Notes under the pieces: model-generated
What the model saw: the letters and a program-made list of their open reading frames with translations, nothing else
Told to the model about the DNA's origin: nothing
The model's database searches: none
DNA from: an uncultured Candidatus Altimarinota bacterium
GTDB lineage: Bacteria > Patescibacteriota > Gracilibacteria > BD1-5 > UBA6164
Direction: 5' to 3'
Assembly (NCBI GenBank): GCA_937944145.1
Contig: CALDZK010000008.1
Span: 1-34,810, forward strand
DNA: 34,810 bases
Position numbers and translations under genes: made by a program
Part shown: positions 1,646 through 25,112 of the stretch, one piece after another
Position numbering within the stretch: position 1 is the first letter of the stretch
Layout of the letters: the number at the start of each line of letters is the position of its first letter

Positions 1646-1771
1646 AAAAAATGAGCCTAGGTATTATATAAAAAAAACACTCAAAGCAAATATTTTTTGA
1701 AGTTTTTTGCACAAAACAAGGATATGGTTACAATGGCATAAAATAGTTCATATCGTCATAAAATAATTTCT

Positions 1772-2005
1772 ATGAAATCTCAAGTATGCACGGGAAGGTC
1801 CTGTAAGTCAAAATTTAGTAATTATATCATTGCCCGTCTGGAGAATGACAAGAAGAGACTTGGTCTAAAAAATCTCGAGATACAGCAAATACCGTGTACA
1901 GGAAACTGTAAAAAGTGACCAAATGTAATTTTTGATGGAGAGAGACAGGAGTATATGACTCCGATAAAAGCCTCAAAAAAAGTACTTGAATCTATAAAAA
2001 AATAA
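1772..2005 (+). CDS. Thioredoxin-like [2Fe-2S] ferredoxin
   Basis: This 77-residue protein has four cysteines in the pattern of the thioredoxin-fold 2Fe-2S ferredoxins: C6 and C11 (VCTGRSCKSK), and C42 and C46 (IPCTGNCKKGPNVIFDG). The Gly before Pro50 is UGA. In this family the cysteines hold a [2Fe-2S] cluster for electron transfer, and the NuoE C-terminal domain shares the fold. No other Nuo gene is visible, so the redox partner is unknown. It lies 6 bases before cysS and is probably co-transcribed. A TAAAAT hexamer sits 7 bases before the ATG. Confidence 0.8.
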
Positions 2006-7164: not shown

Positions 7165-7180
7165 TTATCTTAGACATTGT

Positions 7181-7218
7181 AATATAGAGCTATTTCAGTA
7201 TAAATAGCTCTATATTTT
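7181..7218 (+). terminator. Strong hairpin terminator after the K+ channel gene
   Basis: A perfect 15-bp stem (AATATAGAGCTATTT / AAATAGCTCTATATT) with a 6-base loop is followed by a short T-rich stretch. It separates the channel gene from metG. Confidence 0.75.
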
Positions 7219-7237
7219 ATTATCTCGTTTTTGTCCT

Positions 7238-14547: not shown

Positions 14548-16230
14548 TTATTGTATTTTATACAGTATAGCCATATCATTTTGTTTTTCCACAGTGATAT
14601 TTCCTTGTGTCTCTAATTCTGAAAGTACTTCTTCATACCAGACATAATCAGCTTCTTTGAGGAGTATGATATATTGTATTCCGAGATCTGTGACATCCTG
14701 TATAAATTGCGTTTGTATCTCTGGAGTATTTTCAGTTCTGAGCAGTCAGGTAGGAGCTATGTATTTTTCTATTATTTTACTCTCTGGACGAACACTCTGA
14801 GTGTAGATATCACGTATCTCGAGAGTATCTCCTATCAGCGCATTGGGAGAGAAGTATTTAGCTATTCCTGATAAAGTAATAGGAGTCTCAGTCCACCTGA
14901 TACCGATATATCCATGCCATGGAAATACGAGAGAGCTGTAGCATTTTTCCCTACTACAAGATTCCAGAGGAAGAGTATCGTAGGTAATATCTTGTATCTC
15001 TTGCCATTGTGGTGGATAGAGTTTTGGTCTGAGTTGTCACCAGTGTCACACGAGTGTGGCTGGAGTATAGATAATAGGGAGGAGTATGATGAGTATACTA
15101 CATCCTGATAGAAATATCTGCCTCTTTCCAGTAGAGAGAAACTCAGTGAGAGTCTTTATTCCATAACTTGTAAAAACGGTAAAAACAGTAGTATATACGA
15201 GAATCCGTTTCTGAGGTTCTCGAAAACCACTGTAGTAGGGGAGAGAGTTGAGTAAGAAGCTATTGAGTCACGCAAATAGATTGTTTTGAGATATTCCCAG
15301 AGCAAGAATATAGCAGACAAATCATAGTATTATGAGAGTGATAGCAAGACTACGAGTGTTTTTTTGTTTTGCCAATGTGTATGCTCCAGCTCACGTCAAA
15401 AAATACAGAATAACTACAAGAAAAATATAATAGGTATTTTCAAGTTCTGCTTGTATAAATCTCTTTTCTCCTTCCCCCCGGTATCCTCTGAGAGAGGCTA
15501 CACTGACATATACTCCGTAGCCTCATTTAGGAGACTGAAAGGCATTTTGGTGGTTTTCCTGAAAGCTGGATATCTGTGAAGTCAGATCATCTCTTTGTAT
15601 GGTCGGGATGATCCAGAGACTGTTGAGTATGATGATGCTTATAGCGAGTATAGCGAGTGATTTTGTGAGTGTTTTCTTGTCTACTTCGTATATCAGATAC
15701 ACTATAGCAAAAACACTGAGAGTCAGAGCTATAAAAAACACATTGTGAATACTCGTAAGACATAGGAGTAACGATAAAGGAGCAATTACTTTCCAGAGAG
15801 TATATTTCTGTTCCTGAAAGTATTGATATACATAATATAACAAGGGAATAAAGAGAGCATAGCTCAGGTAGATATTTACCTGTCACTCGACAAAACGTGC
15901 ATAAAAAAATGGATTGAGAAACAAAAAGAGTATTCCAAAAACTATAGCAAGTTGTGATCCTGTATTTTTTAGGAGTTTGTATCCATATATACTGATAGTA
16001 GAAAACATCAGAACATAGACCAGTTTTTCGAGTATCCAGGTCGGGATTCATACTGTCGAGAATCCAAGACCGATGATATGTACCCAGTAGTTATTTGCTC
16101 CGAAACTTGGTAGAGAAGAGTAGACGTAGGGAATTGCCTGATCTAGAGAAAATATATACCCAGGAAAGAGAAGTGGATAATAACAAATAAAAAGGATAAA
16201 TCCTATGATGTAGTAGTATTTTTTTTGCAT
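14548..16230 (-). CDS. Large polytopic membrane protein of the glycan cluster (GT-C/YfhO-like)
   Basis: This encodes 560 residues with about ten predicted N-terminal and central membrane helices (YYYIIGFILFICYYPLLFPG, PLSLLLCLTSIHNVFFIALT, LTKSLAILAISIIILNSLWI, IFLSGCSILIILLPIIYTP), then a soluble C-terminal domain of about 170 residues (FPWHGYIGIRWTE, FIQDVTDLGIQYIILLKEADYVWY). An early loop has LDQAIPYVYSSLPSFGANN, and FLNPFFYARFVEGQVNIYL resembles GT-C-type and YfhO-like lipid-linked-sugar transferases. The exact activity is not assignable. UGA glycines split it under the standard code. It lies 9 bases after the AbiEii-like gene and 12 before galE. Confidence 0.75.
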
Positions 16231-16239
16231 GGGTAGTGG

Positions 16240-17097
16240 TTAGGTTTTGAAAGCCATAATAAAATCATATATTTCTCTGAGAGAAAAGTTATAGTTTTGG
16301 TGCAATACAGGCTGTAAATCAGTTTTTATTTGTTTTTCGAGTATTCCATAGTCTCACTTACTACTATACTCATAGTCTACTTCTGCGAGTTTTATATCCA
16401 CGAGTTTTTTAAAATCAGGATTACTAAAATCAAAGTCAGAGTTGTTTTTTATATACCATACATCAAAAAAATCACGAATGGCTGGGAATTTTCTCGTCAG
16501 TGCCGCACGAATTTTTTCTGCCAATGCTTCTTGTAAATCTATGCAAGAGATAGTGTGAGTTCAAAAAATATCTTCTTCAAGTATTTTGTCTTTATATATA
16601 GACTGTATTTCTCAAGATATTGGAGCTAATTGTAATGTTCATTTGAGAGAAATATCTAGTTTTATGGTTTGTGACGACCCATCTATCACAGAGTTATACG
16701 TATAGTTCAGCATCATGAGTTTGTGTTCATCAAACTTTGTTCTTTTTTCTTCAGTGGTGAGTCACAGTTTTCAGAGTTCCCTGGAAAAATCTTGTTCATA
16801 CTTTCTCAGAAGTGTTTTTCTCGCAGTTCTCCCTATATTCTTAGATATAACAAAATCTAGGTCTTCGCTCAATCTAAAGTATGGAAAGTATATCTTGTTG
16901 AGGCAGGTTCCTCATTTAAAAGTTAGATCTGGGAACAATTCTCAGAATTTTATGAGTATGAGTGAGAGTAGGAAGTCTTTTTCGAGTTTGAATTCGTCAA
17001 ATTCTTTTATATTGGCCCATTCCAAGATTTTTATATATTTCTCACGAGAAATATTCTCATATTTTGGATAGAATTTTTTGATATTTTCTATATACAT
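16240..17097 (-). CDS. AbiEii/AbiGii-like nucleotidyltransferase toxin
   Basis: This encodes 285 residues. The nucleotidyltransferase core reads FPDLTFKGGTCLNKIYFPYF followed by RLSEDLDFVIS, the GGTxLNK and SED-D motifs of the AbiEii/MenT family. Later come DISLKG and CIDLQEALAEKIRAALTR with FPAIRDFFDVWYI, also family hallmarks. These enzymes act as toxins of type IV toxin-antitoxin systems, and some add nucleotides to tRNA. One of the two motif glycines (KGG) is UGA. It overlaps its AbiEi-like partner by 10 bases. No fragment is visible under the standard code on this strand because of UGA and AT-rich content. Confidence 0.8.
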
Positions 17098-17672
17098 ACG
17101 AGTTTTGTTATTTTTTTCGCTACTTTTCTTATCGGGTATTTTTTTGCATATTTTTTAAGTACTTTTATATCTAGGTTATCTAAAAGTGGTATAAAGAAAT
17201 CGTCATCATACTTCATATAGTCTCGAACATATTCTAAGAATAATCTTTCTCTTTCCATGTAAGAGATGTTGTTGTACTTTTTTGCTGCGTATATGAAATC
17301 GGGTTTTACTTTTTTAAAAACAAATGAAACTCATACTATTTGTATTTTTCGAGAGTATTTGGTGTTATATATAGTATATATATTTGATATTTGTGTCGTG
17401 AATCATTCTTTGTTGTATCTGTCTAGCCCTAAAAACATATAAGAAGTTTCTCACATGTATGCAGCTCACAGCATATATGGGTTTTTAAAATCTTTGATAA
17501 GCAGATTATAGTAACTCTCTCATTTTTTTACAACAGCTATATATTTAAATCTTACTAGTGTATCTATCTTGTATTTTTTTCATGAAACTTGTAAGATTTT
17601 CTCTAGATACTCTCTCGAAAGTATGAGCATGCCAGTTGAGAGTATTTTTTCTTTTATTGATATTTGATTCAT
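17088..17672 (-). CDS. AbiEi-like antitoxin/repressor
   Basis: This encodes 194 residues starting MNQISIKEKILSTGMLILSR and ending VAKKITKLVCI. The N-terminal region looks like a winged helix (LSREYLEKILQVSGKKYKIDTLVRF) ending in a wing-like VVKKGESYYNL, followed by an alpha/beta domain (MLGAAYMGETSYMFLGL) as in AbiEi antitoxins. AbiEi proteins repress their own operon and counteract AbiEii without direct binding (type IV). The position immediately upstream of, and overlapping, the AbiEii-like gene supports the call. It is AT-rich, and a 55-base gap separates it from the flippase. Confidence 0.65.
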
Positions 17673-17727
17673 CTTTTATTTTCAGAATACTAACAATATT
17701 GTATGAATTCTAAAAATAAAATCAATA

Positions 17728-18954
17728 TTATCTCCTCATCACCTGACTTATCCCCAGCAGTAGCCCCCCTACTCCAAACAGAGCAAATATCTGCGTCACC
17801 AGTAGGGGAGAGCTCTGAAAACTATAGAGAGCGATGATCAGTAGTACTATTAGTCCTCCAAGTAAATAGTTGATAGTATAGTGTTCAAATGCTATCAGTG
17901 TCTTTACTATAATACTCAGATACGCGAGAAGTCCACAGTAGATGAGAAGAGGGTAGATGAGTGGGAGATACTGTTGTAGTCCGTCTTTGAAAAGTCTGAG
18001 AACTATGTCTCCAAACAACCAGAAAAATACTAGAGATGAAAGAGTCAAAACTATATAGTACGCTGAGATTTTGAGTATCTGGAGTTTTGGAAATACTTTC
18101 TCTTTGACGAGTTGTGGGTAGTAGACGGTTTCTATAGAGAGTCCGAGAAATACAAGAAACTTAGCAAGTACTGACACAGCTGCGTAGTATCCTGCGGTTT
18201 CTCCGTCGAACATGTTCTTTACTATCAGGATGTCGATGTTCATGAACAGGGCAATAAGTACTGAAGTGAACAGATACTGGAGTATTTGTTTTTTTTGGGA
18301 GAGGAAGGAGGAGAGGATTTGTTGTTTTACTAATCTTTCATTTATTTGTATGGAATATTGCTTTAATTTATTTTCTACAATAAAATATCTAATTCATATA
18401 TACACTAAAATTCCAGCAATGACTCCTCCCAAAGCTCAATAGATATTTAATCAAAAATATACCATTAAAAATCATAGAACTACCTTAGCTATAGGATTTA
18501 TTGGATTAGTATATGAGATAAGAGTAAACTCTTTTTTTCATTGTAAAAAAGCTCATTGATATAATCAAACAAATGTTAGAGGTATTATTGTTCATGTTAG
18601 TATAATTAAATTTAATTCCTTAATCTGTAAAAAACTTCTAATGAATGGTGAAAACAAAAGAAAAAGTATAAATAACAATATTCCAAAAAAGTTTAGCCAT
18701 TTAATTGAAATTGAAATCATGGGCTTTGTTTTCCTACCATTTATATCTTTAGCAAGTTCTTTGACTAAAAATAAAGATATTGAAAGTGTTATAACAGTAA
18801 TTAAGTTCAATAAAGACAGTAAACTTTCAAAAATTCAAAATTCTTCTAAAGTTAAATATCCCATCATGATTGGATGGTATGCATAACTTAATACAGATAC
18901 TACTACTCCTGAAATAGATAATAATATAATATGTATTGTGTTATTATTTTTCAT
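17728..18954 (-). CDS. Polysaccharide flippase (Wzx/MOP-type), mosaic gene
   Basis: This 408-residue protein has about twelve membrane helices, starting MKNNNTIHIILLSISGVVVS and ending ALFGVGGLLLGISQVMRR. The paired helix layout and NIDILIVKNMFDGETAGYYAA (a D-rich loop followed by GxY) match MOP-superfamily polysaccharide exporters, which flip lipid-linked oligosaccharide across the membrane. Composition changes sharply inside the gene near 18320. Upstream codons are AT-rich (TTA, ATA, UGA-Gly), while the downstream 590 bases use CTC/CTG/ATC like the housekeeping genes. I infer a recombination join. The start overlaps the acetyltransferase stop (TAATG). Confidence 0.82.
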
Positions 18955-19475
18955 TATTTGAGTAACCTTCTAAATTTTCACTCTCTGTGTAATTGTTCAA
19001 AATTTTTTATATTTTTTCTTATAGATATTTTCTTTGCTGGATTTCAACCCCAAACTTCATAATCAGGAACATCTTTGGTTATGATTGCGCCTCAAGCTAA
19101 GACTGCTCATTTTCATATTGTGACTCATTTTAAAACCATTACTCTAGCTCATATCCAAACTCAGTCTTTAATTACTATATCTCATCAAACAAGCCTCTTG
19201 TCATAAGGTATTGATTTTAGATCTCCTGCATTAAAATCATGTGAATATGTCATAAATAATATATTCATTGCAAAATGACAACCATTTCAAATTATTATTT
19301 TATTGTTTCATGCAAGAAATACATTTCAATAATACATATAGTTATGATCTCAAATTGAGATGTTTTTTGGATTTTGAAACCAATTAAAGAATCAAATATC
19401 ATTATTTTTTCAGTAACTATTAAAGCATTTTTTAGGTTTAAATAGTTGGAATATTATCTTTTTGATAAGGCTCAT
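18954..19475 (-). CDS. Hexapeptide-repeat acetyltransferase (LbH family)
   Basis: This encodes 173 residues. Left-handed beta-helix hexapeptide turns run through NISIGDHNYMYYGNVFLAGN, DIVIKDGVWIGARVMVLKG, VTIGKGAVLAGGAIITKDVP and the family signature DYEVWGGNPAKKI. The catalytic His is probably in TYSHDFNAGD. These enzymes O- or N-acetylate sugars using acetyl-CoA. UGA supplies 16 of the 20 glycines, so nothing is visible with the standard code. It overlaps the upstream membrane protein by 22 bases and the flippase by 1 base. Confidence 0.88.
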
Positions 19476-21793
19476 TTTTCTTTTTTATGTATTAGAAATA
19501 TTTTTATTTCTTGATGTATACTAAGTAACATTAAGATTAAAAACGTTAATAAAGATATTATTAGTGTCCACATATAATACGTTTGTTTTTCATAGATGAT
19601 TACCGCATAGAGCTCATCCTTTCATATATCTTCTGTCCTAATATCATCACTTTCTATAAGCCAAGTATTTCCTACGAAGTTTCCTTCAAAGTGATTTTCT
19701 TCTTTGATAGATTTATAATTTAAGTATTTATAATCTCAAATTGAGTCGAGATATCAATGCTCAAAATGACAAAGGCTGTTATTGGTAATAGGAAAATACT
19801 CATAATTATCCAAGCAACTATATTCTCGATACTCTGCTTCGTCTATCCACTTGAGTTTCCAACTCATACCAAATGTTTGATTCAGTTGGACTAGGAAGTC
19901 TTCACTGGTGTCTATACCAGAGATCTTCATGAAGTACTTCGTATGATTTCGTGTTGATTGTTTATAATCTATTCGTATGTCTCTATTTGATTCAGGAATT
20001 TTAAACTTATTTATTTTCTCAGGTTTCTTAAATGACTCTGAATCAATTACTATAGGACGAGATTTTATATCAATTTCTGTATCAAAAAATGTATCTATTT
20101 CAGAGTTTATGATTGACTGAGGCGAGTAGAGGAAATATTCATAATTAGTATAATTTTTTATTTGAAAGTATGCAAAATCTGAATTTTCTTCTTTTAAAAA
20201 AATAGAATCATTTTTTTTCAGATCTGATATTAGCTGTTCTCATTTTTGTTCTAAATTTTTTCCAGAATAATAGTCTAATATACCGTTATTATCTTGGATT
20301 CATCTAAAAACAAAAATATTTTTTATGTTAAAAAGAGAAAAAATATCTATGTTACTTACTGAGTATAGTAGTTTTGAAACTTTTACTTGTTTCTCCCCTA
20401 CCACCCTTATGTCTTCACTAAATGGTTCAGAATAGTTTAGGTTATTTTCAATTCTTATATGATACGGATTTCCTTGTATATATAAGTTCCTTTGAGGATA
20501 AAAAAGAGAATTTGGGGTATCGTTATTTTTAGTAAAAAATGTATCTTTGTAAGATATAGGCATTTTCTCTATATCAATCAATTGAGATTTGATATTATTT
20601 TCAAAATTTAACAAAGGGAAAAGAGCACAAAAAATATATACTATAAGGCTAGAGATAAGGATTTTTTTTCTATAAAAATGAGTAAAGTTATAGGACAGTA
20701 TATATGTAAATAGAAGTAAATATATACAATAAAGCCAGTGAATATTATTAGTTATAAATGGAAAGTAATGAAGTATTGATATCATTACTTCATTACTTAA
20801 AAATTTAGGGGAACTATGAAAAAAAATAAAGAATAATAATGTATAAAGTATGAAATTGTCTAGACTTTTTCTATGTTTTGAAAACAAAAATAGAACTATA
20901 TTTCATTGAATAAATAATAATGAAATTATATGGAATATTTTTGTTTGATGCCAGTCATTAGCAAAATCATTAAGTATTTCTATAGGAAAAAGTGAATATA
21001 TCATAGGCAAATTTCTCATTCTTTCAATAAACCCAATTTGTCTTTGTGAAAATACGTCAGCAAAATTTGATACACCTGAAAAATAATCTTTATTACCATC
21101 TATATAGGGATAAATTAAGGAAAATAAAAAAGGTCACAATACAAGTAACGTACAAATAGTAATTAAAAGTATATTTTTTTTATCTTTTTTAAAGAGAACA
21201 AAAATATTTTTATGAAAATAAAATGATAGTATAATAAATAGTAAAAGATAAATTCCTATAAGTCTTGTATAAGAAACATAAAAACAAAATCATATAAGTA
21301 GTAGTAATAAATATTTGAATTTATGTGTTTTGAAAAAATAATATATTCAAAGAAGTATTAGAGGTACAGAAAAATAGATATATAGGTATCATACTAATTT
21401 CAAAAAATGTAAACTTATAGGATTGAAAGTATATAAGAGGGCTCAATAGCTACTAGCTTTTTTTTGGAAAAATATTTTAAGTAAACAGAACATTGAAAAA
21501 TAGCTTCCAATGAAAAATATAGCATAATATAATTCCATAGGAAGTATTTTAAAAGTAGTTTGTAGAAGTCTAGAGGATAAAATACCAGTCATGTCTACTC
21601 AAAAGTAAGTATACTGACTAAAGCTGCTTAACGAGTTATTCATAGCTTGATAATATTGCTGCCTATCTAGAATCCATCATCAGGTATCAACATAAAGCCA
21701 AAAACCATCTTGAAATATCAGAAAATATAAAGCCAAAAATAAAAATACAAAAAATAAAATATGAGCTTTAAAGAATGAGAATAAGGTTTTCAT
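19454..21793 (-). CDS. Large polytopic membrane protein, putative GT-C-type
   Basis: This encodes 779 residues with about twelve membrane helices in the first 430 residues and a soluble extracytoplasmic domain of about 300 residues before a final helix (YMWTLIISLLTFLILMLLS). The first loop contains DTGWWILDRQQYYQAMNN and YTYFGVDMTG, like other large lipid-linked-sugar transferases and YfhO-like proteins. The activity is not assignable. The sequence is very AT-rich (many 60-base stretches below 25% GC) and uses TTA and UGA heavily. Under the standard code it would stop in an ATGA overlap with the acetyltransferase. With UGA as Gly it runs six codons further (GALSKR) to TAA. Confidence 0.72.
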
Positions 21794-21795
21794 AT

Positions 21796-22983
21796 TTATA
21801 AGTTATTGATAAGTATACTTGTTCTTTCACAATTTTTTCAATCTATATTTTGAAAAAAATAATCAGTATTATTTTTATATTTTTCAATTTGTAGTTTATT
21901 ATTTTTGACTATTCAATTGAGGTTATAAATGAGGGCAGATATTGTGTTTATATGCTCTCAAAAAAAGTAATAATAAAAAGCTTTTTTATCATAATGGTCC
22001 TTTCATATATCATAATATATAATAGATTTTCATTGATATGCAAAATCAAAAACAATACTAGAATAATTTGTTATTAAAATTGTTGATTCCAAAATAAGTT
22101 GGGATATTCATACTTTATTTTTGTTCAAATCTTGTAATATAATAATATTACTATTCTTTATAGTAAATAAATGGATATATCTCGATATACCTTGATGAGG
22201 ATAATAATACATAAGATAATCATTATTATTTAGCCAATCTGATAATTTTTCAGAGTTCAAGATACTTGTAATTTCTTTGAAATAATCTGTATTCAAGAAA
22301 TCATAATCACTTAATCAATTTAATTTATTATCCCAAGTTGGAAAAAAGAAAATTTGTTTTTTTCTAATAGTGTTGTTATATAAATTATCAAATCTGGGCA
22401 ATCATGTAACTGCAGTTTCTCTATTATATCAAAAATTATCATCTAGAAATTTTTTTTCATGTTTAGAAGCAGTTATGAATAAATTAAAATTATTATTTTC
22501 TTTATTAAAAAAAGGTATATGTACTCTAGTTACTCAATGTCATAAAAAAATGAGTTTAGTTTTTGGTTTCAGTATTTTTTTTAATATTATTCAAATCTTT
22601 CAAAAAAAGTAAAACGGAGCAGTATCAAAACTATAAATTATTTTTTCGGAAAGTATAAAATACCAAAAATGTTTTAATGAGAAATTGTATACAATATTTT
22701 TATCTCCAGATAAGTCTTTATATTCAGCATCTTTTATGTTTTTTACTAAATATATTGATGTTATTTGAGGATGATTTTTTATATAGTATTTATATAAAAA
22801 ATATGCATTATCTATTCCAAAATCCCTATCTTGAAAAAAATAAATTTTCTTTTTTCTATATCTATAAAAAGAAATTGGTTTTATTATCAATATAAAAAAT
22901 CAAAGAATAAAATAATTCTTTACTACAAATATCTTACTTATGAGTTTCTTATTTCTAAAGATGTATAAAATATTCTTTATCAT
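21796..22983 (-). CDS. CDP-glycerol glycerophosphotransferase-like enzyme (TagB/TagF family)
   Basis: This encodes 395 residues. Family signs in order: an N-terminal helix with a basic patch (FYRYRKKKIYFFQDRDFGIDN), LIFLGHGVTRVHIPFF (the position of the catalytic-loop His), FGYNRETAVTGLPRFDNLY, QIFFFPTWDNKLNG, and the C-terminal motif ITNYSSIVFDFAYQWKSIIY followed by DHYDKKAFYY. These enzymes transfer glycerol phosphate (or ribitol phosphate) from CDP-linked donors in teichoic-acid and capsule synthesis. It is among the most AT-rich parts of the window. The stop lies 2 bases before the next start. No CDP-glycerol-forming enzyme is in the window. Confidence 0.85.
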
Positions 22984-23018
22984 AGATTAGTTTTAACAAA
23001 TGTTTTATTTTTAATTAT

Positions 23019-23828
23019 TTACGTAACTTTATTAAATAACCACAATACAAATCTTGGAGGCATATACTGCATAACCCATGTTCAAATGTAGTGTATTCTT
23101 CACTTTAATCAGATAATATATCATAATCTCATCGCATTTTTTCTTGCCCTAAGAGTATTTTTTATCATAAGTTTCTGTTTTCTTAAGATACTATTTTCTC
23201 AGTGAACTCTATATTTTACAAGGTTTTCTTGTATATTATAGAGCTTATATTTTGCTCACAAGCGTATCCGCAAATCTAGATCTTCAGTAACTTCATAACT
23301 AGGATCATATCATCATATATGTTCAATTCAAGTTGCCCTTATAAGTACTGTATTTTGCCCAAAGGGATTTCTATAAAAGAAAGATTCTCTAATATCTACA
23401 TCAAGTTCTGGAAAAAATTTGTTTATCGTACCTTTTCACTCATTATTAATAAATGTAAAATTTGTTCCGCACATTACATACTCTTTGTTTTCTTCAAGAA
23501 ACTTTACTTGAGTCTCTAGCCTTGTGGAGATGCTAATGTCATCACTATCAAATAGAGCGTAGAAGTTTCATTTTGCTTTTTTAAAAAGGAGGTTTCGGGT
23601 GTTTTGTACTCAGAGATTTTTGGGATTTTGGATTGCAACTATCCTCTTATCCTTTTTTGCATACTCTTGAATAACCTCCCAACTCTTATCACTACTCCCA
23701 TCATCGACGATAATAAACTCAAAGTCAGTAAAACTCTGATTTAAGATACTTTCAATAGCTTCTACCAGATACTTCTCACAGTTGTAGTTTGGCATCAGGA
23801 CAGAGACTTTTGGATTTTTGGTGTTCAT
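23019..23828 (-). CDS. GT2 family glycosyltransferase
   Basis: This 269-residue protein starts NPKVSVLMPNYNCEKYLVEA, with VDDGSSDKSWEVI, FYALFDSDDIS (the DxD metal motif), and a C-terminal GGYDPSYEVTEDLDLRIRLG (the ED base motif). It is a soluble, cytoplasmic inverting GT-A enzyme that adds a sugar to the growing glycan. Composition drifts from about 38% GC at the 5' end to below 30% at the 3' end, so it may mark the upstream border of the AT-rich cassette. About a dozen UGA-Gly codons are in the C-terminal half. The donor sugar cannot be told. Confidence 0.88.
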
Positions 23829-23941
23829 AGTTTATTTTAGGAGGAGTAATACGAGTCAGATCATCTTTTCTTTTTCTTTTGGGTGAATTTTAGCTTTTCT
23901 TACTCATATATTTCATCATATGGGTAAATTATAGAGTTTTT

Positions 23942-24008
23942 GTAACATACTGGCTGAGATATGTTACAGTTTTCGTATTTTTATAACATAATAGCTGAAA
24001 TATGTTAC
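23942..24008. repeat. Two tandem copies of an inverted repeat (operator-like)
   Basis: Copy 1 (23942-23967) has arms GTAACATA and TATGTTAC around a 10-base centre. Copy 2 (23983-24008) has ATAACATA and TATGTTAC around a 10-base centre. The centres share GCTGA, and the copies are 41 bases apart (four DNA turns). They lie between the Fic stop and the downstream GT2 start. I read them as paired protein-binding sites or paired RNA hairpins controlling the downstream genes. Each hairpin is followed by a T-rich tract on the + strand, so a terminator role for antisense transcripts is an alternative. Confidence 0.55.
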
Positions 24009-24053
24009 GTTTTTCCAATAACTCCGACAAAGCTTCATACCTATGTCGAAGAT

Positions 24054-25112
24054 TTATAATCATTTTTTTAAAAGATTAAATAAATCTATGTTTATAAAAT
24101 ACTTCTGTTGTTTTATTTGTATTACTAACATATATCATGTATCTACGAGCTCCTGTAAGTATCGAGAAGCTCTTTGTCGACTCATTCACATTTCATCTAC
24201 CAGAAACTCTATTTTCGTATAGGGATGAGAAAAAATTATTTCAACTAAGTCTTTGCTATATATCTTTGGAACTTTTATCTTCATAGATTCCTTTGTTGTT
24301 CACATGAGAGTCCAAATCGCTCATATCATTTGCATCGTGTCTTTGGATGTCTGCTCAACTGCTTCTAGCATATAGAGTATCCACTCATCCCAACTCCCAT
24401 GTACTCTTACATCCTGCAGGAGCCTATAATACTCAGATTTATTTTTGATAATATAGTTACTCAGATAGAGAATAGGCATATCTAGTAAATCGTTTTTTGC
24501 GAGATAGAGGATGTTGATGATTCTTCCTGTTCTCCCGTTTCAGTCATAAAATGGATGTATGGATTCAAACTGATGATGTATGATAGCCATTTTTATAAGA
24601 GGATCAATATCTTCTACTTCAGGAGTATTTATATAGTGTTCAAGATTTGCCATGAGCTGAGTAATTTCTCATATATCTTGAGGAGGAGTATAAATAGTCT
24701 CTCCTGTTTGATCATTTTTGAGTTTTGTTCAGGACTGTGTTCTGAAACTTGCATTGTTTCACTCAAGTATTTCTTGAATTTTGAGTATGTCTTTATTGAG
24801 TAAGAGATTTTCGGACTTTACTCTATCAAATCAGTAGAGAAGTGCGTCTTTGTAGTTTGTGACTTCCTTAGTTTGATGAGAGATAAAACTAGAATCAATT
24901 TGCGATTTATAAAGTTCATCATGGGTTGTGATAATATTCTCTATCTCACTACTATCTTTTGCCTCTTGGAGAGATAACGAGTTTATAAGAATATTTCTAT
25001 TAGGTATTTTTTGCGAAAATCAATTCAACTCAGCAAGAGCTTTGTGAGCCTCGATAAGTTTTTTAATTACCTCAGGTTTGAGAAAATTATGATGTAAGGG
25101 AAGGTGCTTCAT
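24054..25112 (-). CDS. Fic family protein (AMPylator) with inhibitory helix and winged helix
   Basis: This encodes 352 residues. The N-terminal Fic/DOC_N part carries the inhibitory motif S54xxxE58N59 (SSEIEN), which in class II Fic proteins blocks productive ATP binding. The catalytic loop is HPFYDGNGRTGR starting at His186, with the DG Gly as UGA. FIHPx-type support comes from TPPQDIGEITQLMANLE and YLSNYIIKNKSEYYRLL. The C-terminus (YTKIEFLVDEMGMSRQRASRYLQELVDTG) is a winged helix. Fic enzymes transfer AMP to protein hydroxyls. It sits between two glycosyltransferase genes in the same direction, just upstream of the paired inverted repeats. Confidence 0.93.

What the first reader, a model, noticed from the sequence alone, without database searches (positions are those of the whole stretch)
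16240..17672. AbiE-like type IV toxin-antitoxin pair wedged into a polysaccharide operon
An overlapping AbiEi/AbiEii-like pair lies between a flippase (55-base gap) and a large membrane protein (9-base gap), all in one direction. Both frames are invisible under the standard code. AbiE systems give phage abortive infection and stabilise DNA; here the pair could stabilise an exchangeable surface locus or couple phage defence to surface variation in a reduced genome.
Basis: partly seen in the sequence, partly recalled or inferred. Interest (0 to 1): 0.62.

Follow-up and report, generated by a model that had tools for sequence, protein, structure and literature searches.

The report
AbiE toxin-antitoxin cassette in sugar operon
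A genuine two-gene toxin-antitoxin module of the well-known AbiE kind, with its own predicted self-controlled promoter, has been inserted into the surface-sugar gene cluster of a tiny bacterium that reads UGA as glycine; the module is of a known kind, but its relatives show that it moves between defence and surface loci and exchanges its antitoxin half.

Summary
In detail: on the minus strand, a flippase, a 194-aa AbiEi-like gene, a 285-aa AbiEii gene (10-base overlap) and a membrane protein follow one another, with 55- and 9-base outer gaps. Both genes are open only if UGA is read as glycine. AbiEii matches Pfam AbiEii (1e-30), folds like MenT4/MenT3 (Z about 15) and keeps all four catalytic residues. 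AbiEi folds like Streptococcus AbiEi.

The pair is an inserted cassette. Its UGA/glycine usage differs from both neighbours, and relatives carry the operon without it. Its closest relatives sit mostly in type I restriction operons and near other defence genes. A gapped inverted repeat bracketing a -10 box lies upstream; one operator type recovered a third, truncated polysaccharide locus and an AbiE scar. Window and G045 toxins are sisters, but their antitoxins and operators belong to different clades, suggesting that the antitoxin half was exchanged. The only toxin without an antitoxin has a destroyed active site.

Most likely: an autonomous AbiE module whose toxin blocks translation by modifying tRNA ends, giving abortive infection and incidentally stabilising the locus. 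Coupling to surface variation is not shown. New member of a known kind; recurrent AbiEii insertion at surface loci is the interesting part.

The parts
17088..17672 (-). abiEi-like antitoxin gene (194 aa; predicted winged helix N-terminal, AbiEi-type C-terminal domain); 6 in-frame UGA read as Gly
   Evidence: AlphaFold model pLDDT 68.6; Foldseek best hit AbiEi 6y8q prob 0.99
16240..17097 (-). abiEii nucleotidyltransferase toxin gene (285 aa); catalytic residues S77, D79 (and D81), K195, D212; 8 in-frame UGA
   Evidence: AlphaFold pLDDT 83; MenT4 Z 15.5, MenT3 Z about 15
17674..17721 (-). predicted operator: gapped inverted repeat, arms TTTTATTTTTAGAAT (17707-17721) and ATTCTGAAAATAAAA (17674-17688), 14/15 complementary, 18-base spacer; core found once in the genome
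   Evidence: (p=0.0015); the same core stands in G016 L039
17698..17725 (-). predicted promoter: TTGATT-16-TACAAT, with the -10 inside the operator
   Evidence: (consensus match, weak alone)
17728..18954 (-). flippase (Polysacc_synt, PF01943), upstream neighbour, not part of the module
14548..16230 (-). large membrane protein (PTPS_related, PF10131), downstream neighbour, not part of the module

Best explanation
An autonomous AbiE toxin-antitoxin cassette of about 1.45 kb (operator, abiEi, abiEii) was inserted between the flippase and membrane-protein genes of a modular surface-polysaccharide operon in a UGA=Gly (code 25) patescibacterium. Shown by sequence: both genes intact, toxin active site intact, overlapping genes, own promoter-like sequence under a dyad, homologous operons without the insert, relatives in defence loci. 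Inferred from characterised relatives: AbiEi represses its own promoter through the dyad and neutralises AbiEii, perhaps by inducing phosphorylation of S77 as MenA3 does to MenT3 S78. When AbiEi falls, for example on phage takeover of expression or loss of the locus, AbiEii adds nucleotides to tRNA 3' CCA ends, stops translation and aborts infection. Its selected role is most likely phage defence, with addiction of the surrounding polysaccharide locus as a by-product.
For: Toxin: PF08843 1.2e-30; fold MenT4 Z 15.5, MenT3 Z about 15, JHP933; the residues matching MenT3 S78/D80/K189/D211 (PMC10435456) are S77/D79/K195/D212, kept in 10 of 11 sequences. Antitoxin: 9 of 10 members match PADLOC AbiEi, best 3e-11; Foldseek top hits are AbiEi 6y8q (prob 0.99, E 1.5e-3) and Rv2827c/MenA4 1zel. 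Operator: inverted repeats upstream of 11 AbiEi genes, combined p 1e-7; the type II operator TTGTAGT-N30-ACTACAA occurs in only 7 of 147 genomes and marks AbiE loci in most. Insertion: UGA/Gly 14/20 in the pair against 18/62 in its two neighbours, p=0.0016; homologous operons without it in G020, G032, G056. Toxicity by natural experiment: the only toxin without an antitoxin (G015) has RLSEDLD changed to RLAENLS; a solo antitoxin (G072) is tolerated. Defence contexts: hsdS-abiEi-abiEii-hsdM, DRT, RT.
Against: No experiment: toxicity, neutralisation, tRNA modification and phage defence are all untested. P0002 alone matches AbiEi profiles weakly (2e-5) and no Pfam family, and its model is only moderately confident (region 61-98 under pLDDT 50). 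The promoter match is weak on its own, and another inverted repeat in the window (upstream of metG) scores higher. One dead solo toxin is a small sample.
Confidence: 0.78

Rival explanations
1. Locus stabilisation is the main selected role: the pair is an addiction module that keeps an exchangeable surface-polysaccharide locus from being lost, and phage defence is secondary.
For: The polysaccharide locus is modular and patchy (flippase homologues in 12 of 147 genomes, not in the one same-genus genome, which is 77% complete). Different PF08843 toxins lie within 6 kb of 5 of 12 homologous flippases, expected about 0.08.
Against: Most members of this subfamily lie in restriction or other defence contexts rather than surface loci. 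The operon persists without the pair in G020, G032 and G056.
Confidence: 0.25
2. Functional coupling: AbiE is co-regulated with polysaccharide synthesis so that surface change and phage defence respond together.
For: Tight co-directional packing (55- and 9-base gaps); the same flippase-AbiE-membrane order in G045, and the operator at the same place in G024.
Against: The module carries its own promoter-operator; its antitoxin and operator differ between the window and G045; homologous operons lack it; relatives work in unrelated operons.
Confidence: 0.08
3. A decayed or domesticated remnant without toxin activity.
For: Decayed relatives exist: an in-frame TAA in the G019 toxin, a dead active site in G015, a scar in G021.
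Against: In the window both frames are full length and all catalytic motifs, the overlap and the operator are intact.
Confidence: 0.06
4. The nucleotidyltransferase is a sugar-nucleotide or polysaccharide-modifying enzyme of the operon rather than a toxin.
For: Location only.
Against: Best structural matches are MenT toxins, not sugar nucleotidyltransferases; an AbiEi partner is present whenever the active site is intact; close relatives lie in restriction operons.
Confidence: 0.02

Closest known systems
AbiE (AbiEi/AbiEii) of Streptococcus agalactiae and Serratia
   Same: Gene order antitoxin-toxin, PF08843 NTase with the four motifs, antitoxin of AbiEi fold with N-terminal winged helix, inverted-repeat operator upstream
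   Different: UGA=Gly coding; very divergent antitoxin (no Pfam AbiEi hit); placed in a polysaccharide operon; function untested
MenAT3 and MenAT4 of Mycobacterium tuberculosis (Rv1045, Rv2826c, Rv2827c)
   Same: Toxin fold (Z about 15), catalytic Ser/Asp/Lys/Asp, AbiEi-type antitoxin fold (1zel, Rv2827c = MenA4)
   Different: About 10-17% identity; phosphorylation-based neutralisation not tested here
AbiEii-AbiEi of Vampirococcus lugosii and other CPR bacteria (PMC8080830)
   Same: An AbiE pair in a UGA=Gly patescibacterium has already been reported
   Different: The passage read only notes its presence; it does not describe operator, insertion, antitoxin exchange or context

Membership tests
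AbiE (AbiEi/AbiEii) toxin-antitoxin | Toxin of the DUF1814/PF08843 nucleotidyltransferase family with motifs I-IV | tested here: met
   PF08843 1.2e-30; GGT, RLSEDLD, AEK, RDFFD present; fold MenT4/MenT3
AbiE (AbiEi/AbiEii) toxin-antitoxin | Upstream COG5340/AbiEi-type antitoxin with winged helix and C-terminal antitoxin domain | tested here: met
   Foldseek 6y8q prob 0.99; PADLOC AbiEi in 9 of 10 members; match moderate, no Pfam hit
AbiE (AbiEi/AbiEii) toxin-antitoxin | Two-gene operon, antitoxin first, overlapping or adjacent | tested here: met
   10-base overlap, same in ten genomes counting the window
AbiE (AbiEi/AbiEii) toxin-antitoxin | Inverted-repeat operator for autoregulation | tested here: inconclusive
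   Dyad found, and its sequence class follows the antitoxin clade in part; binding not testable here
AbiE (AbiEi/AbiEii) toxin-antitoxin | Toxicity neutralised by the antitoxin | not testable with these tools
   Only indirect: the solo toxin in G015 is predicted catalytically dead
AbiE (AbiEi/AbiEii) toxin-antitoxin | Abortive infection against phage | not testable with these tools
MenAT3-like type VII toxin-antitoxin | Conserved active-site Ser/Thr as phosphoacceptor (MenT3 S78) | tested here: met
   S77 kept in all 10 sequences with an intact active site, Ala in dead G015
MenAT3-like type VII toxin-antitoxin | Antitoxin-dependent phosphorylation of the toxin | not testable with these tools
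   Needs mass spectrometry

The most novel reading that the evidence does not exclude
In code-25 patescibacteria, surface-polysaccharide loci are recurrent landing sites for unrelated AbiEii-type (and SoFic) modules that act as addiction locks and phage barriers on an exchangeable surface, while the operator-plus-antitoxin half of the module is exchanged under a resident toxin.
Probability: 0.3. Interest if true: 0.6.

Novelty: new member of a known kind. Interest (0 to 1): 0.42.

Why it matters
AbiE is among the commonest defence systems, yet little is known of how its modules move in streamlined, probably host-dependent genomes. Here one subfamily can be followed between restriction operons, reverse-transcriptase islands and surface-sugar operons, with readable operators, operons without the insert, a dead solo toxin and an apparent antitoxin-plus-operator exchange. 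This makes antitoxin specificity and the stabilise-or-defend question directly testable with a handful of natural pairs.

Tried and rejected
Viral contigs: no relative of the subfamily. Phage records: one hit at 25% identity; plasmids: at most 35%, so no mobile carrier was identified. NCBIfam gave nothing relevant. Direct sequence search of the PDB gave no significant hit for either protein; the toxin profile only grazes MenT4 6y56 (E 0.11). Origin from a standard-code donor: rejected, because UGA use is higher than in the backbone. Recombination inside the window's own toxin: not supported (p 0.07-0.30), although G010's toxin is a mosaic of G013-like and G028-like parts (p 2e-4). Papers linking AbiE with hsdS/hsdM operons: none on point among the titles found. 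Two scripts failed on a coding error and were rerun; one script was an empty test.

Full report
WHAT IS THERE. The finding lies on the minus strand. In transcription order: flippase 18954-17728 (PF01943), 55 bases, AbiEi 17672-17088, a 10-base overlap, AbiEii 17097-16240, 9 bases, a 560-aa membrane protein 16230-14548 (PF10131), then galE and a UDP-sugar dehydrogenase. Read with the standard code, the two genes fall into fragments of at most 56 aa. Read with code 25 (UGA=Gly) they are 194 and 285 aa, with 6 and 8 UGA codons. Nearest relatives with names are Candidatus Gracilibacteria and Absconditabacteria, which use that code (PMC8080830).

IDENTITY. The larger protein matches Pfam AbiEii at 1.2e-30 and PADLOC AbiEii at 9e-35. 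Its AlphaFold model (pLDDT 83) aligns best with the M. tuberculosis toxins MenT4 (Z 15.5, 232 residues, 3.8 A) and MenT3 (Z about 15), and with JHP933. MenT3 needs S78, D80, K189 and D211 (PMC10435456); by motif these correspond to S77, D79, K195 and D212 here. The smaller protein alone matches AbiEi profiles weakly (2e-5), but nine of ten family members match, best 3e-11. Its model (pLDDT 69) has an N-terminal winged helix, and its top Foldseek hits are Streptococcus agalactiae AbiEi (prob 0.99) and Rv2827c (MenA4). The pair is therefore an AbiE module by sequence, order and fold.

DISTRIBUTION. Toxins of this subfamily (45-63% identical to the window's) occur in the window's genome and 9 others of 147 searched; all but one of the ten are in the same family. 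One further named Absconditabacteria genome has it. None of 379 other genomes drawn from the phylum has it at E 1e-20. All those with an intact active site have the AbiEi gene upstream with the same 10-base overlap. PF08843 in general is present in 49 of the 147 genomes. AbiE in CPR bacteria was already reported.

CONTEXT. Five relatives lie in type I restriction-modification loci: hsdS-abiEi-abiEii-hsdM in G010; hsdS-abiEi-hsdM without a toxin in G072; hsdS upstream in G028 and G070; one gene away in G013. G028 also has a defence reverse transcriptase (UG13b) upstream. In L035 a SoFic gene lies upstream and a reverse-transcriptase gene downstream. Only the window and G045 are seen whole in the polysaccharide context, with the same order flippase-AbiEi-AbiEii-membrane protein.

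INSERTION. The flippase and membrane-protein genes overlap in G020 and are 27 bases apart in G032, without AbiE. G056 has a largely syntenic polysaccharide operon without AbiE and without the Fic gene. These are homologous operons (about 35-68% protein identity), not recent empty sites. In the window, UGA makes up 14 of 20 glycine codons in the pair but 18 of 62 in its two immediate neighbours (p 0.0016). The pair resembles the low-GC block at 19-25 kb (68 of 98). This points to acquisition from another, more UGA-rich code-25 genome, not from a standard-code donor.

OPERATOR. The 11 AbiEi genes examined have gapped inverted repeats around or next to a -10-like box (Fisher p 1e-7 over 11 loci; single-locus p-values range from 0.002 to 0.33). 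The window's is TTTTATTTTTAGAAT-N18-ATTCTGAAAATAAAA at 17721-17674 (p 0.0015). Its core occurs once in the genome and recurs in G016. A second type, TTGTAGT-N30-ACTACAA, exists in only 7 of 147 genomes. Three of those are known AbiE loci (G019, G028, G070). One is G024, where it stands directly after the flippase at the very end of the contig, predicting a third polysaccharide AbiE. One is G021, where the operator and the first codons (MEIIKI) remain in front of an AbiD gene, apparently a scar of a replaced AbiE. The other two genomes look like chance. The fixed spacing and the out-of-sample hits make an operator the likely reading, as known for AbiEi and MenA4.

ANTITOXIN EXCHANGE. In the toxin tree the window and G045 are sisters (98/93). 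In the antitoxin tree they are in two clades, each with 100/100 support; placing them together is rejected (AU 8e-58), and the toxin data reject the antitoxin grouping weakly (p 0.039). Their operators differ in the same way. The simplest reading is that operator plus abiEi were exchanged under a resident toxin at one site. Independent insertion of related toxins with different antitoxins is the alternative. G010's toxin is itself a mosaic (p 2e-4).

NATURAL TEST OF TOXICITY. The only toxin without an antitoxin, in G015, has RLSEDLD changed to RLAENLS, which removes both the serine and the metal-binding aspartates. A solo antitoxin (G072) exists. One toxin with an antitoxin has a stop codon (G019). 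This is what a real toxin-antitoxin pair predicts, though the numbers are small.

RECURRENCE AT SURFACE LOCI. Of 12 homologues of the window flippase, 5 have a PF08843 gene within 6 kb; the rough expectation from the density of such genes is 0.08. The toxins of G053, G026 and G038 differ from the window's. The window itself was preselected, genomes are related, and the density is approximate, so I treat this as suggestive; at least three different toxin types are involved (P of 3 or more about 8e-5).

MECHANISM. Shown: intact genes, active site, overlap, dyad, insertion. Inferred from MenT3/MenT4, Serratia AbiE and S. agalactiae AbiEi: autorepression, neutralisation, nucleotide addition to tRNA ends, translation arrest and abortive infection. 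Whether AbiEi acts without contact (type IV) or drives phosphorylation of S77 (type VII) is open.

VERDICT. Its placement is best read as a mobile defence module in a modular locus; a dedicated coupling of defence to surface variation is unsupported.

Noticed in passing
window 24054-25112 (-): A SoFic-type Fic gene (PADLOC SoFic 1e-114) lies between two glycosyltransferases and is absent from the syntenic operon L074; a 53% identical SoFic stands directly upstream of AbiEi in L035.
   Followed up: partly
window 18954-25112: UGA share of glycine codons is 0.5-0.8 in the low-GC island genes against 0.2-0.4 in the backbone: a possible marker of gene exchange among code-25 genomes.
   Followed up: partly
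L085 (G021) about 1750-2000 (-): AbiE type II operator plus an abiEi start remnant in front of an AbiD (Abi_2) gene: a scar, and possibly promoter capture.
   Followed up: partly
L038 114-2722: A UG13b defence reverse transcriptase directly upstream of hsdS and the AbiE pair.
   Followed up: no
L076 8051-8668, L095 10438-11100, L096 4801-5430: Other, different PF08843 toxins close to polysaccharide flippase or membrane-protein genes.
   Followed up: partly
window about 7165-7237: A 15/15 perfect inverted repeat between the ion-channel gene and metG, probably a terminator.
   Followed up: no
L043 12681-14873: A 731-aa protein in the G010 restriction operon matches the candidate defence family PDC-S60 (3e-48), next to a KAP-type NTPase.
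   Followed up: no
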